DNA from: Candidatus Altarchaeum sp.
GTDB taxonomy: Archaea > Altiarchaeota > Altiarchaeia > Altiarchaeales > Altiarchaeaceae
Assembly (NCBI GenBank): GCA_018260755.1
Contig: JAGTWP010000002.1
Coordinates: 1-36,703 of the forward strand
DNA length: 36,703 nt
Direction: 5' to 3'
Below are positions 13,707 through 18,621 of this stretch, piece after piece. Below the pieces are notes generated by a model. It was not told the origin of the DNA, ran no database searches, and was given only the letters and a program-made list of their open reading frames with translations. The stretch's first letter is position 1. Each line of letters opens with the position of its first letter. Position numbers and translations under genes: made by a program.

Positions 13707-14357
13707 ATGCTCAAGCAAATTTCCATCAAAAAAGATGCCTTTATCGGTCTGTTCGGATTGCTTACTGATAAATATTGCCTTCTTTCTTACGACTTTCCGA
13801 ATGTTGAGTTGGATGTTCCTGTTTTAAGGGCAAAAATTTATTCTACCGATTTAACAGGAATTTTTTGTGTCGGAAACTCTAACGGTTTGCTTATACCTGA
13901 TGTTATAGAAAACGATGAAGAAAAAAAGATAAATGACTTTTGCAAAAAAAACAATATAAATTTATGGAAAATTTCAACTGATTTTAATGCACTAGGAAAT
14001 TTAATTGCCTGTAATGATAGTCATGCCTTGATTAGCGAGTTAATTCCAAAGAAAAATTTAAAGGACATAAAGGATATTTTAGGTGTTGAATGTTCCTTTG
14101 GTTCTGTCGGAGGACATACGGAGGTCGGAAGTTGTTTGGTTGTGACAAATAAAGGATTTTTGGCACATGCCGATGCCGAAGACACTTTAGAAGGTATCAG
14201 GGAAATTTTCGGAATTGATGGAAAGGTAGGAAGTGTAAATATGGGCTTTCCTTATGTGCGGGCAGGGATTGTAGCGAATTCCAAAAATGCCTTTGTAGGT
14301 GATGAAACTACAGGGATAGAAATGAATGTGATAAGTGATGCGTTGAAGATTGATTAA
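13707..14357 (+). CDS. eif6: Translation initiation factor 6 (aIF6)
   Basis: GLFGLLTDKYCLLS, SVGGHTEVGSCLVVTNKGFLAH, VNMGFPYVRAGIVAN. Confidence 0.95.
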   Translation: MLKQISIKKDAFIGLFGLLTDKYCLLSYDFPNVELDVPVLRAKIYSTDLTGIFCVGNSNGLLIPDVIENDEEKKINDFCKKNNINLWKISTDFNALGNLIACNDSHALISELIPKKNLKDIKDILGVECSFGSVGGHTEVGSCLVVTNKGFLAHADAEDTLEGIREIFGIDGKVGSVNMGFPYVRAGIVANSKNAFVGDETTGIEMNVISDALKID

Positions 14358-14385
14358 TAAAATTTTATTAAATAGGTAAATACAA

Positions 14386-15387
14386 ATGGAATCAGAAGAG
14401 ATAATAAAAATATTTGAATCATTTGTTAAGAAAGATAACGAAACATTTTATAAAATTGCTCATGAAATCATAGAAGACGAGAAAAGAAAAAAGCATTATT
14501 TGTTAGTTAAAAAGTTGGAAAATATTTTGTTAGAATCTCACGAATCTTCAAATTTAAATCACATCGAACAAATACCAATAATACCTCGAGATAATGAAAA
14601 AGGTTTTAAATTATTTGAAGTAAAAAAGATTTTCCTTGATTGGAACGATGTAATTCTATCAAAAGACGCCAAAGAAACGCTAAATCAAATAATAGAAGAA
14701 TTGAAAAATGAAGATGTTTTAGAATCTTATGGCTTAAAAGCAAAACAAAAAATACTTTTTTATGGCCCTCCAGGGACAGGTAAAACACTTACAGCAAAAG
14801 TCATGAGTTCAGTTATAGGATATCCTCTTGTCACTATTAGATTTGATTCTGTTATATCTTCATATTTAGGTGAGACTGCATCTAATTTAAGGAAAATATT
14901 TGATTTCATAGAAAAGGGCAAATGGGTGGTTCTTTTTGATGAATTCGACATCATTGGAAAACAAAGAGATGACCCTACCGAACATGGGGAGATTAAAAGA
15001 GTTGTTAATAATTTCATGTTGATGCTTGAAAACTATGAAGGAGATAGTGTGATAATCGCATCTACAAATCACCAGCACTTACTTGATGTTGGAGTATGGC
15101 GAAGATTTGACGATGTTGTTTATTTTGATCTTCCTGATGAAAAAAGGCGGAAGAAAATTTTTGAAAAATTTTTGAGGGTTTTAAAAAAAGATAAAAATCT
15201 TAATTTAACTAAACTTGCAAAGGATACTGAAGGATTTTCAGGGGCAGATATTGAACAGGTTTGTATTGATGCTCTTAAAAAAGCAATATTAAAAAAGGAA
15301 GAATTTGTTAATTATAATAATGTTCAAGAATCTGTTTCAAAGCAAAGAAACAAAATGAATGCTAAGGAGGTGGTTAAACATGAGTGA
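14386..15387 (+). CDS. ietA-like: AAA+ ATPase, IetA-like
   Basis: Walker A GPPGTGKT, Walker B VVLFDEFD, sensor IIASTNH, Arg-finger region WRRFDD; paired with a downstream S8 protease. Confidence 0.85.
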   Translation: MESEEIIKIFESFVKKDNETFYKIAHEIIEDEKRKKHYLLVKKLENILLESHESSNLNHIEQIPIIPRDNEKGFKLFEVKKIFLDWNDVILSKDAKETLNQIIEELKNEDVLESYGLKAKQKILFYGPPGTGKTLTAKVMSSVIGYPLVTIRFDSVISSYLGETASNLRKIFDFIEKGKWVVLFDEFDIIGKQRDDPTEHGEIKRVVNNFMLMLENYEGDSVIIASTNHQHLLDVGVWRRFDDVVYFDLPDEKRRKKIFEKFLRVLKKDKNLNLTKLAKDTEGFSGADIEQVCIDALKKAILKKEEFVNYNNVQESVSKQRNKMNAKEVVKHE

Positions 15388-17785
15388 ACATCTTAACCTT
15401 CCATTCTATGAAAAGGAATTTGAAAGGAAAAAGCGTGGAGGTAGTAGAATAAAACCTCGTGAGGATAGAAAACACTTCTTCGAGATTCAAATTCGTAAGC
15501 TCGGTGAAATAAAAAAAGATTTTGATAAAGATAAAGAAAGATTTAAGCAATTCTTTGATCCTAATCTCTTGTTTAAAATCGAACTGAAACAGCACGTATC
15601 TGAAGAAGATTTTAGAAAATTTTTGGAAAGAAATAAAATACAAATTGTATCTCCTTCACCGGAAGGCATAGGTTATTGGATTTCACTAGCAAAAAATGAG
15701 AATCTGGATGAAGTTAAAAAAAGATTAGAAGAGTATGGTAAGGACGATGAAAAGGAAGCAAAATATAAGGATATATTTGATGCTATAGAAAAATTTGATG
15801 TCATTCCTCCTGAAGATAAAATAGGTGAACGTTTAAAAGAAAATCCATTACAAAAAGGGAAAGAATATTATTTAGATATTGAAATCTGGATAATGGAGAA
15901 AGAAACCCTCGATAAATTCTTGGTCGGATTTGAAAAATTAATAGTCCATGAAAATGGGCAAATAACCGACAAACTCGTTACCGATAATCTATGTATTCTA
16001 AGAGTTAAAATAAACAAGTCTCTATTTGACGAAATAATAAAACTAAAAGAAATAAGTAGAATAGATAGACCTCCAAAGCCATACATAACCTATCAAATGT
16101 TGTCTTCTCCATTAGAAGGATTTAATGTTGGAGATTCGCCACCTAATGATGCTACAGCTATTGCTGTATTAGACAGTGGAATTTTATCAAATCACCCTTT
16201 ACTTGAAAAAGCAGTAGGGGATGAAATAGCAGTGCCATTTCTGTACAGTAACAAAATAAAAGAGGATAAACCACAAGATGATGTTGGGCATGGCACAGAA
16301 GTTGCCGGAATTGCACTTTATGGAGACATAAAAAAGTGTATTGGCGAGAAAATTTTTCAACCAGAAGTATGGATACTTTCAGCAAAGATTATGTTTAAAA
16401 ATGAAGATGGTGAAGCAGAATATTTTCCTGAAGAATTATTAGAACATCAACTGGAAAAGGCAGTAAGATATTTTGCTACCACTTATCATAATTTTAAGGT
16501 CGTAAATCTTTCCTTAGGGGATATGGATAAAAAAATGTTTGGCGACCAAAGGCAGTTTCCATTAGCAATTTTGATAGATGAATTAGCAAAAGAATACAAT
16601 ATTGTTTTTGTTATCTCCGCAGGCAATCTGGATTTTACTAATCTTCTTCCAAAATATCCTAAAGAATATCCTAATTATCTAATTGAAGAAAGAAAAGAGG
16701 TTAAAATTATAGATCCTGCTTCCTCTGCTTATGCGATTACAGTAGGATCTATTGCCCAAGAATTTGGTCCGTCTGACATAGATCCAAAAGAGATTTTATT
16801 TTCACCCGCTAAAACAAATTACCCTTCTCCTTTTACTTGCGTGGGGCCAGGATATAAAGGAATGATAAAACCCGAACTTGTGGAGGAAGGAGGCAATATC
16901 ATCTTTTCACCAAAAGATCTTAAAAAGTTTGAAGACATAGGCAGTAAACTTATAGTTTTAAATCATAAATGGATTGAAGATGAAAAGCTCTTTGCTGTTA
17001 GTTATGGAACAAGCTTGTCAGCTCCAAAAGTCGCTAATTACATAGCAAAACTTTTCAATCATTTTCCAAATTACTCTTCAAATTGTATAAAAGGATTACT
17101 TTTGGCATCTGCTGAAATACCTTCCGATAGACCATCTCCTTTAGAAGGAATAAATTTTAATGACTCGAACACAAAACTTATAGATTTGTTAAAAGTATAT
17201 GGTTACGGCAAACCAAACTTTGATGTGGCTAAGTCATCCGAGCATAATAGGGTTCTACTTCTGGCAGAAAATAAAATCAAATTAAACAGCATTCATCTAT
17301 ATTATTTTTATTTGCCAAAAGAATTTGTTGAAATCAATGGTGAAAAAGAAATTTCTGTTGTTCTTGTGTATAATCCACCAATAGCAGGAAACAGAAGTAC
17401 TAATTACTTTGGTAGTACGATGGAATATCATTTGTTTAAAAATGCTGAAATTGAAGAAGTAATAGAATGTTACAAAAACATTAAAAAGGAAATAGATGAT
17501 GTGGTTCCTAATGAACTAAAATTGAAAGAAATAGATTTGCACCCGGGAGTTAATATACGAAAAAGAGGAATACATCAAAAAGGAATTAATATTTATTTAA
17601 ATAAACCAGATATTGATACTTACAAACCACTAGTGCTTGCAGTTATATCTAAAGATAATTGGATAAAGGACGACAAAAAACTCCAAGATTATGCTGTTGT
17701 GGTTACAATAAAACACAAGATGAAAATAGATCTTTATAACCTTATAAGACAACAAATACAACAAAGAGTGAAAATAAAACAATGA
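15380..17785 (+). CDS. ietS-like: S8 subtilisin-like serine protease, IetS-like
   Basis: Triad motifs AIAVLDSGI (Asp), DDVGHGTEVAGIA (His), VSYGTSLSAPKVA (Ser). Start MSEHLNLPF at 15380, preceded by aaggaggtgg, preferred over 15359. Confidence 0.87.
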   Translation: MSEHLNLPFYEKEFERKKRGGSRIKPREDRKHFFEIQIRKLGEIKKDFDKDKERFKQFFDPNLLFKIELKQHVSEEDFRKFLERNKIQIVSPSPEGIGYWISLAKNENLDEVKKRLEEYGKDDEKEAKYKDIFDAIEKFDVIPPEDKIGERLKENPLQKGKEYYLDIEIWIMEKETLDKFLVGFEKLIVHENGQITDKLVTDNLCILRVKINKSLFDEIIKLKEISRIDRPPKPYITYQMLSSPLEGFNVGDSPPNDATAIAVLDSGILSNHPLLEKAVGDEIAVPFLYSNKIKEDKPQDDVGHGTEVAGIALYGDIKKCIGEKIFQPEVWILSAKIMFKNEDGEAEYFPEELLEHQLEKAVRYFATTYHNFKVVNLSLGDMDKKMFGDQRQFPLAILIDELAKEYNIVFVISAGNLDFTNLLPKYPKEYPNYLIEERKEVKIIDPASSAYAITVGSIAQEFGPSDIDPKEILFSPAKTNYPSPFTCVGPGYKGMIKPELVEEGGNIIFSPKDLKKFEDIGSKLIVLNHKWIEDEKLFAVSYGTSLSAPKVANYIAKLFNHFPNYSSNCIKGLLLASAEIPSDRPSPLEGINFNDSNTKLIDLLKVYGYGKPNFDVAKSSEHNRVLLLAENKIKLNSIHLYYFYLPKEFVEINGEKEISVVLVYNPPIAGNRSTNYFGSTMEYHLFKNAEIEEVIECYKNIKKEIDDVVPNELKLKEIDLHPGVNIRKRGIHQKGINIYLNKPDIDTYKPLVLAVISKDNWIKDDKKLQDYAVVVTIKHKMKIDLYNLIRQQIQQRVKIKQ

Positions 17786-18621
17786 AGATGAAAATAAATT
17801 TTGCCCATTCACCTGATGCAGACGATGCATTCATGTTTTATGCAATTGAGGAAAGAAAAATTGATACTGGTGGATTTGAAATTAAAGGAATTTTAAGTGA
17901 TATTGAAACATTAAATAATAAAGCATTAAATTCGGTATATGAAGCGACAGCAATATCATTTCACCTTTATCCTTACATTGCCAAAAATTATTATCTTATG
18001 AAAACAGGTGGAAGTATTGGCTACAATTACGGGCCTATTGTTATTTCAAAATCAAAAATTGATGGAATAAAAGGCAAAGTTATTGGAATTCCTGGAAAAT
18101 GGACAACTGCTTATTTATTATTAAAAATCTTTGAGGAAAATTTTACCCCTGTTTTTATGCCTTTTGATAAAATTATAGATGCCGTAGAAGCGGGAAAAAT
18201 TGATGCCGGCTTGATAATTCACGAAGGACAAATTACCTACGCCGAAAGAAATTTATTTAAAATTATAGATTTAGGAGAATGGTGGTTTGAAAGCCATAAA
18301 TTGCCTGTTCCGTTGGGATGTAATGTTATCAGAAAGGACATAGGAATTGAAAATGCAAAAAAAATTTCCGAAATTTTGAAAAAAAGCATTTTATACAGCA
18401 TAGAGCATAAAAAAGAGGCAATTAATTATGCATCAAAATTTGCGAGAAATTTAAGCGATCTCAATAAGATTGAAAAATTTGTTGATATGTATGTGAACGA
18501 AAGAACAATTGAATTGGGCGATGATGATATCGCTGCCATAAAAATTTTGCTGAACGAAGGACACAAAAAAGGTGTGATTCAAGGTATAACTCCATTCAAA
18601 ACAGAACTTGAAATCGTATAA
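17782..18621 (+). CDS. MqnA/MqnD-family (1,4-dihydroxy-6-naphthoate synthase-like, periplasmic-binding-protein fold)
   Basis: FAHSPDADDAFMFYAIEERKID, SIGYNYGPIVIS, DAGLIIHEGQITY, GEWWF. Confidence 0.85.
   Translation: MKMKINFAHSPDADDAFMFYAIEERKIDTGGFEIKGILSDIETLNNKALNSVYEATAISFHLYPYIAKNYYLMKTGGSIGYNYGPIVISKSKIDGIKGKVIGIPGKWTTAYLLLKIFEENFTPVFMPFDKIIDAVEAGKIDAGLIIHEGQITYAERNLFKIIDLGEWWFESHKLPVPLGCNVIRKDIGIENAKKISEILKKSILYSIEHKKEAINYASKFARNLSDLNKIEKFVDMYVNERTIELGDDDIAAIKILLNEGHKKGVIQGITPFKTELEIV

What the first reader, a model, noticed from the sequence alone, without database searches (positions are those of the whole stretch)
14386..17785. IetAS-like ATPase/subtilase pair embedded in a housekeeping region
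A 333-aa AAA+ ATPase with intact Walker A/B overlaps by 8 nt (ATGAGTGA, SD aaggaggtgg) an approximately 800-aa S8 protease with a complete Asp/His/Ser triad. This size, order and domain pairing matches IetA/IetS, known from Agrobacterium plasmid incompatibility/toxicity and later as an anti-phage system. Here it sits between aIF6 and an MqnA/D-like gene in an archaeon, with no signal peptide evident on the protease, consistent with a cytoplasmic regulated protease. An archaeal copy would be a useful divergent member.
Basis: partly seen in the sequence, partly recalled or inferred. Interest (0 to 1): 0.75.

Follow-up and report, generated by a model that had tools for sequence, protein, structure and literature searches.

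The report
Mobile IetAS defence pair in archaeon
An archaeon carries, squeezed between two housekeeping genes, a complete copy of a known bacterial two-gene 'toxin protease plus guarding ATPase' immune module that has moved across the bacteria-archaea boundary; it is a genuine but fairly ordinary new member of a known family, sitting at a spot where sister species carry other small toxin or defence modules.

Summary
Window 14386-15387 encodes a 333-aa AAA+ ATPase and 15380-17785 an 801-aa S8 protease (8-nt overlap, strong SD). Both match PADLOC IetA (E=1.7e-95) and IetS (E=1.6e-127) nearly end to end, with all catalytic residues conserved. They fall far below NCBIfam's equivalog cut-offs, so this is a divergent branch. 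The pair is accessory: 1 of 29 genomes in its phylum has it. In sister species the same L31e-aIF6-[X]-MqnD-NIF3 slot holds other modules (MNT/HEPN pair; aspartic-protease pair; decayed remnants). Closest relatives (69-73% aa identity) are in Chloroflexota, Nitrospirae, Psychracetigena (Bacteria) and Ca. Pyrohabitans (Archaea); DNA similarity covers only the two genes, IetA and IetS trees agree, and dN/dS is about 0.1-0.16. So: a mobile, selected IetAS cassette that moved between domains. Best mechanism (inferred): IetA restrains the toxic cytoplasmic protease IetS, which is unleashed on infection or loss of IetA. Archaeal copies exist elsewhere (Methanothrix, Methanoperedens, Geoglobus), so an archaeal copy alone is not new. 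Function was not tested.

The parts
14386..15387 (+). IetA-like AAA+ ATPase, 333 aa (classical AAA clade, three-helix N-terminal segment, AAA + lid)
   Evidence: PADLOC IetA PDLC02196 E=1.7e-95, residues 3-327; PF00004; AF2 mean pLDDT 86; Foldseek to PAN/FtsH/p97 ATPase domains
14764..14787 (+). Walker A GPPGTGKT (residues 127-134)
   Evidence: sequence; G127, G130, G132, K133 invariant in 64 homologues
14863..14871 (+). pore-loop-1-like motif Y160-L161-G162
   Evidence: aromatic Y/F at 160 in 63 of 64, L161 and G162 invariant; pore-loop role by analogy with AAA unfoldases (inference)
14926..14943 (+). Walker B VVLFDE (residues 181-186)
   Evidence: D185 and E186 invariant in 64 homologues
15067..15105 (+). 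sensor 1 N228 and arginine-finger pair R239-R240
   Evidence: invariant in 64 homologues
15364..15370 (+). Shine-Dalgarno AAGGAGG for IetS, inside the 3' end of ietA
   Evidence: sequence
15380..17785 (+). IetS-like S8 (subtilisin-family) protease, 801 aa, no evident signal peptide
   Evidence: PADLOC IetS PDLC02198 E=1.6e-127, residues 10-800; PF00082 E=2.4e-35; AF2 mean pLDDT 88
15569..16066 (+). N-terminal region of IetS (residues 64-229): two successive beta-alpha-beta-beta-alpha-beta-like units resembling subtilase propeptides; possible built-in inhibitory prodomain
   Evidence: AF2 secondary structure; Foldseek best hit is propeptide-bearing ProN-Tk-SP 3afg; assignment as prodomain is inference, no Pfam I9 hit
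16172..16174 (+). catalytic Asp265
   Evidence: invariant
16289..16291 (+). catalytic His304
   Evidence: invariant
16625..16627 (+). oxyanion-hole Asn416
   Evidence: invariant
17012..17014 (+). catalytic Ser545
   Evidence: invariant
17249..17716 (+). C-terminal beta-rich domain of IetS (residues about 624-779)
   Evidence: AF2 secondary structure; Foldseek hits to KP-43/SubHal type subtilases
14378..17796 (+). maximal extent of DNA similarity to the closest relatives: the transferred unit is only the two genes
   Evidence: blastn 72-73% to L067, L068, L069, L073 within this span only
13707..14357 (+). upstream flank: aIF6 (conserved in sister species; 28 nt before ietA)
17782..18621 (+). 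downstream flank: MqnA/D-like (conserved in sister species; start overlaps ietS stop by 4 nt)

Best explanation
A complete, selectively maintained IetAS module acquired horizontally into a variable slot between aIF6 and MqnD in an archaeon. Likely mechanism: IetS is a cytoplasmic subtilase that damages essential proteins when free. IetA, presumably a hexameric classical-AAA ATPase, normally binds and restrains it (antitoxin/guard). When infection or mobile-element entry disturbs IetA, or IetA is lost, IetS is released and growth arrest or cell death stops the invader; the same logic makes the pair addictive and stabilises the locus. Shown here: gene anatomy, family placement, conserved active sites, accessory distribution, cross-domain transfer of exactly the two genes, purifying selection. 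Known from relatives in the literature: protease toxic, ATPase neutralising. Inferred: that this archaeal pair does the same, its trigger and its targets.
For: PADLOC IetA/IetS nearly full-length hits; invariant catalytic residues; ATPase directly upstream of the protease in all five plasmid loci opened and IetS directly after IetA in 68 of 74 genome loci with room downstream; congruent IetA and IetS trees; absent from 28 other genomes of the phylum with different cargo in the same slot in sister species, of which the MNT gene and the aspartic protease hit PADLOC candidate models PDC-S09 and PDC-M08B; DNA similarity limited to the two genes; dN/dS about 0.1-0.16; relatives sit next to restriction-modification and Fic genes, on plasmids and next to phage terminase genes. 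Literature: subtilase toxin neutralised by AAA-ATPase in Mycoplasma (PMC8562856) and in SGI1 sgiAT (PMC5006074); a review table lists ietAS among systems overcome by mutations in core phage proteins (PMC10286901).
Against: Both proteins score far below NCBIfam equivalog cut-offs (258.7 vs 510; 85.7 vs 900), so transfer of tested function is over a large distance. No clear defence island or recognisable integrase around the pair in the window. No experiment; trigger and substrates unknown; no IetA or IetS structure found in the PDB by sequence. G000 is 85% complete and the sister genomes 65-87%, so some absences elsewhere in those genomes could be assembly gaps (though the slot itself was read through in two of three).
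Confidence: 0.8

Rival explanations
1. The pair works mainly as an addiction or stabilisation module (toxin-antitoxin), retained for its own persistence and without a protective role against viruses in this archaeon.
For: Founding description is plasmid stability/incompatibility (Yamamoto 2009, cited in PMC8562856); sgiAT stabilises a genomic island; the slot in a sister species holds an MNT/HEPN pair, a TA type; insertion into a co-directional ribosomal-gene run with 4-nt overlap to MqnD may make loss costly.
Against: Chromosomal location without an element to stabilise; family is listed as anti-phage by PADLOC and NCBIfam; relatives cluster with restriction-modification genes.
Confidence: 0.35
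2. IetA feeds substrates to IetS as a split ATP-dependent protease (ClpXP/FtsH-like) used for infection-triggered or regulatory proteolysis, and IetA is an activator and not only a restrainer.
For: IetA keeps a pore-loop-1-like aromatic Y160-L-G and the closest solved folds are PAN, FtsH, Rpt and p97, i.e. unfoldases; near-obligate pairing with a peptidase.
Against: In tested relatives the ATPase neutralises the protease, and the protease alone is toxic; the modelled subtilase fold shows no obvious secluded chamber.
Confidence: 0.25
3. Housekeeping regulatory protease unrelated to IetAS, conserved in the lineage.
For: Location between aIF6 and MqnD; IetS matches generic subtilase profiles too.
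Against: Near full-length IetA/IetS hits; absent from all relatives; slot occupied by other modules; nearest kin in other phyla and the other domain.
Confidence: 0.02
4. Binning or assembly artefact: a bacterial fragment wrongly joined to an archaeal contig.
For: Nearest relatives are mostly bacterial; IetA/IetS have the lowest GC3 of the window genes compared (0.21 vs 0.24-0.35).
Against: Single 52-kb contig with archaeal genes on both sides, tight 28-nt and 4-nt junctions, same slot occupied by accessory modules in sister genomes, ordinary codon-usage distance.
Confidence: 0.03

Closest known systems
IetAS (PADLOC; NCBIfam spelling IteA/IteS; DefenseFinder Gao_Iet), founding member ietA-ietS of the Agrobacterium Ti plasmid
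   Same: Gene order ATPase then S8 protease, sizes, overlapping or abutting genes, catalytic motifs, near full-length profile matches to both PADLOC families
   Different: About 26-31% identical in IetS to plasmid-borne proteins, below NCBIfam equivalog cut-offs; chromosomal slot in an archaeon, no plasmid or prophage context seen. The Ti-plasmid proteins themselves were not compared here
IetAS of Ca. Pyrohabitans JdFR-17 (L069), Dehalococcoidia AH-958-J08 (L067), Nitrospirae L.E.N.5_1 (L073), Ca. Psychracetigena (L068)
   Same: 69-73% identical in both proteins, tightly packed genes in the same order; one well-supported clade
   Different: Different neighbours: restriction-modification-type genes in L067, L068 and L073; M24 peptidase and nickel-insertion protein genes in L069
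TA132/3 AAA-ATPase/subtilisin-like pair of Mycoplasma mycoides (PMC8562856)
   Same: ATPase 353 aa upstream, protease 757 aa downstream; protease toxic, ATPase neutralises; chromosomal
   Different: Tested experimentally there, not here; no sequence comparison was made here
sgiAT of Salmonella Genomic Island 1 (PMC5006074)
   Same: AAA-ATPase antitoxin and subtilisin-like toxin in one operon
   Different: Closer to the Agrobacterium pair (50%/36% identity per that paper) and carried by an integrative mobilisable element

Membership tests
IetAS (PADLOC two-gene system) | IetA-family AAA+ ATPase with near full-length profile match | tested here: met
   PDLC02196 E=1.7e-95, protein 3-327, profile 4-328/374
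IetAS (PADLOC two-gene system) | IetS-family S8 protease with near full-length profile match | tested here: met
   PDLC02198 E=1.6e-127, protein 10-800, profile 12-786/795
IetAS (PADLOC two-gene system) | Adjacent, co-directional, ATPase first | tested here: met
   8-nt overlap; same order in relatives
IetAS (PADLOC two-gene system) | Intact Walker A/B and Asp/His/Ser triad | tested here: met
IetAS (PADLOC two-gene system) | Accessory, horizontally mobile distribution | tested here: met
NCBIfam equivalogs IteA_antiphage NF042959 / IteS_antiphage NF042956 | Score above curated cut-off (510 / 900 bits) | tested here: not met
   258.7 and 85.7 bits: same broad family, not the curated orthologue group
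IetAS as anti-phage / anti-plasmid system | Protection against virus or plasmid | not testable with these tools
   needs a plaque, virus or plasmid assay
Type II-like toxin-antitoxin (subtilase toxin, AAA antitoxin) | Protease toxic alone, neutralised by ATPase | not testable with these tools
   shown for relatives only
ClpXP/FtsH-like split ATP-dependent protease | Substrate-threading pore loop in the ATPase | tested here: met
   Motif Y160-L161-G162 (Y or F in 63 of 64 homologues); threading itself not tested
ClpXP/FtsH-like split ATP-dependent protease | Self-compartmentalising protease chamber | tested here: inconclusive
   model is a subtilase fold with extra N- and C-terminal domains; oligomer not modelled

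The most novel reading that the evidence does not exclude
The aIF6-MqnD interval is a chromosomal exchange site for small toxin/defence cassettes in this archaeal genus. Promoterless two-gene modules (IetAS, MNT/HEPN, aspartic protease plus small partner) replace one another inside a ribosomal-protein/aIF6 co-directional gene run and are expressed by read-through, giving an archaeal counterpart of bacterial defence hotspots that uses a translation operon as the landing pad.
Probability: 0.35. Interest if true: 0.45.

Novelty: new member of a known kind. Interest (0 to 1): 0.3.

Why it matters
It documents an intact IetAS module in a sparsely sampled archaeal lineage, with about 70% identity to copies in several bacterial phyla and in Ca. 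Pyrohabitans, which makes it a good case of cross-domain transfer of a protease-based immune module. This clade of closely similar IetAS from very different hosts is useful material for biochemistry: no IetA or IetS structure was found in the PDB by sequence, and a 2023 paper still describes the mechanism of ietAS as unknown (PMC9958689).

Tried and rejected
Housekeeping-protease reading: rejected by distribution. Low IetS hits in other genomes of the phylum (for example G002 C9, G020): rejected as generic subtilases, at most 31 bits and only over part of the catalytic core. Composition as proof of recent transfer: IetA/IetS have the lowest GC3 of the genes compared but their codon-usage distance is ordinary, so not used. 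Direct or inverted repeats flanking the pair in the window: none convincing. Yamamoto 2009 and Gao 2020 are not in the held library, so their content is second-hand or from memory. Species identity of the host could not be established; it is called an archaeon from aIF6, L31e, the TCP-1/cpn60 family chaperonin, the archaeal-type helicase (PF21280) and ThiN.

Full report
OBSERVATION. The ATPase is 333 aa (14386-15387). The protease ORF can be read from 15359 (808 aa), but homology and a strong ribosome-binding site AAGGAGG (15364-15370) point to ATG 15380, giving 801 aa and an 8-nt overlap ATGAGTGA. The flanks are aIF6 (28 nt upstream) and an MqnA/D-family gene whose ATG overlaps the IetS stop by 4 nt. 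Hence L31e, aIF6, IetA, IetS and MqnD form one tight co-directional run.

FAMILY. PADLOC gives IetA (PDLC02196, E=1.7e-95) and IetS (PDLC02198, E=1.6e-127), both nearly end to end; Pfam gives AAA + AAA_lid_3 and Peptidase_S8. NCBIfam's anti-phage IteA/IteS equivalogs are recognised (E=9e-77 and 2.3e-24), but scores are far below the equivalog cut-offs (258.7 vs 510; 85.7 vs 900 bits). So the pair belongs to the family at the PADLOC level and is not a close orthologue of the NCBIfam reference proteins.

CATALYTIC ANATOMY. In alignments of 64 IetA and 56 IetS homologues, Walker A, Walker B (D185, E186), N228, R239-R240 and the pore-loop-like [YF]LG are invariant or nearly so in IetA, and D265, H304, N416 and S545 are invariant in IetS. 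AlphaFold models are confident (mean pLDDT 86 and 88). IetA's AAA domain is closest to PAN, FtsH, Rpt and p97. IetS is a subtilase with an N-terminal region whose secondary structure resembles two tandem propeptide-like units, and a C-terminal beta-rich domain; the best structural match is the propeptide-bearing Tk-SP. Reading the N-terminal region as a built-in prodomain is inference; I did not examine coordinates. By sequence, only one distant subtilisin matched IetS in the PDB, and IetA matched general AAA ATPases.

DISTRIBUTION IN THE LINEAGE. The window's order and family hold 4 genomes of one genus, and its class and phylum hold 29. A full-length IetS occurs only in the window's genome; all other hits are short generic subtilase matches of 31 bits or less. 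The flanking genes are present in all four genomes of the genus.

THE SLOT. In sister G003 (L014) aIF6 and MqnD are on one contig and enclose a nucleotidyltransferase plus HEPN pair, followed by a 48-nt duplicate of the MqnD start. In G002 (L013) they enclose a 78-aa protein and a retropepsin-like aspartic protease. Copies of GGACTTACGnAA lie on both sides of that module (3 matches in the contig, 0.04 expected), including an imperfect 22-nt inverted repeat. In G001 the two flanks lie on different contigs: a weak match to a Mu-type transposase C-terminus follows aIF6, and a decayed tail resembling the G002 aspartic protease precedes MqnD (by eye). The MNT gene and the aspartic protease themselves hit PADLOC candidate-defence models PDC-S09 and PDC-M08B. 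The slot is therefore variable, and IetAS is one of its occupants. With four genomes, calling it a dedicated exchange site remains a hypothesis.

RELATIVES. On plasmids 172 records match IetS (39 over at least 80% of its length; all below 60% identity, the listed best about 26-31%); the five loci opened all have an ATPase directly upstream. In viral contigs, full-length pairs occur, one (L038, 40% in IetS) close upstream of terminase and portal genes. In the genome collection the best IetA matches are Dehalococcoidia 73%, Ca. Pyrohabitans 73%, Psychracetigena 70%, Nitrospirae 69%, Omnitrophota 61% and Geoglobus 55%. Of 74 genome loci with at least 1.5 kb downstream, 68 have IetS directly after IetA.

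TRANSFER AND SELECTION. IetA and IetS trees agree on the clade of window + Dehalococcoidia + Psychracetigena + Pyrohabitans + Nitrospirae + Omnitrophota (100/100 in both), with Geoglobus next; order inside the clade is mostly open, so direction of transfer is not resolved. DNA similarity (72-73%) to the four closest loci lies within 14378-17796, i.e. the two genes and nothing of aIF6 or MqnD. dN is 0.15-0.21 against dS of 1.1-2.1 for the four closest relatives, hence purifying selection on both genes. The Nitrospirae locus has a RadC-like gene next to ietA and a DNA methylase after ietS; the Dehalococcoidia locus has a methylase and a ResIII helicase-type gene; Methanoperedens has a Fic gene. 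Several of these neighbours are typical of defence-rich regions.

OTHER ARCHAEA. Besides the above, IetAS is found in Methanothrix and Methanoperedens. In a sample of 394 genomes of the phylum of the Methanothrix genome, 9 matched at E<=1e-20 and 8 of them at over 300 bits; in the phylum of Ca. Pyrohabitans 1 of 23. Archaeal IetAS is thus rare and patchy but not unprecedented. A 2026 survey of archaeal immunity does not mention it in its main text (PMC12988326).

MECHANISM. For relatives it is reported that the subtilase alone is toxic and the AAA-ATPase neutralises it (Mycoplasma TA132/3, PMC8562856; SGI1 sgiAT, PMC5006074), and a review table lists ietAS among systems escaped by mutations in core phage proteins (PMC10286901). 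That IetAS is anti-phage rests on Gao et al. 2020, known to me but not held here, and on its naming in PADLOC, NCBIfam and DefenseFinder. My preferred reading is guard-and-release: IetA restrains IetS until infection or loss of IetA frees it. Family and active sites are shown; toxicity, restraint, trigger and targets are inferred for this copy.

VERDICT. The finding is a well-supported new member of a known system with clear evidence of cross-domain mobility. It is not a new kind of system.

Noticed in passing
L014:1894-2831 (G003), L013:2535-3315 (G002), L016:5502-5714 and L015 upstream of MqnD (G001): The aIF6-MqnD interval holds different modules in each sister genome (MNT/HEPN pair with a 48-nt duplicate of the MqnD start; aspartic-protease pair with flanking repeats; transposase-like fragment and decayed aspartic protease).
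   Followed up: partly
L087:3097-8177 and L119:2924-8190: IetA-like ATPase gene without IetS, directly after an SNF2-type helicase gene of about 950-990 aa and followed by a gene of about 390 aa (an M78/IrrE-type peptidase in L119): possibly IetA recruited into a different system.
   Followed up: no
L013:2617-3224: 78-aa protein plus retropepsin-like aspartic protease pair (PADLOC candidate PDC-M08B), flanked by copies of GGACTTACGnAA.
   Followed up: no
window:13070-13681: Ribosomal protein L31e carries a lysine/glutamate-rich N-terminal extension of about 125 residues whose length varies between sister species (164-205 aa proteins).
   Followed up: no
window:35063-36568: AAA_14/DUF4143 ATPase gene, a type often seen as accessory in archaea.
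   Followed up: no
L013:3-923 (G002): Downstream of NIF3 in G002 lies a gene with many 'ATFSGEA' pentapeptide-like repeats that is not at this place in the window.
   Followed up: no
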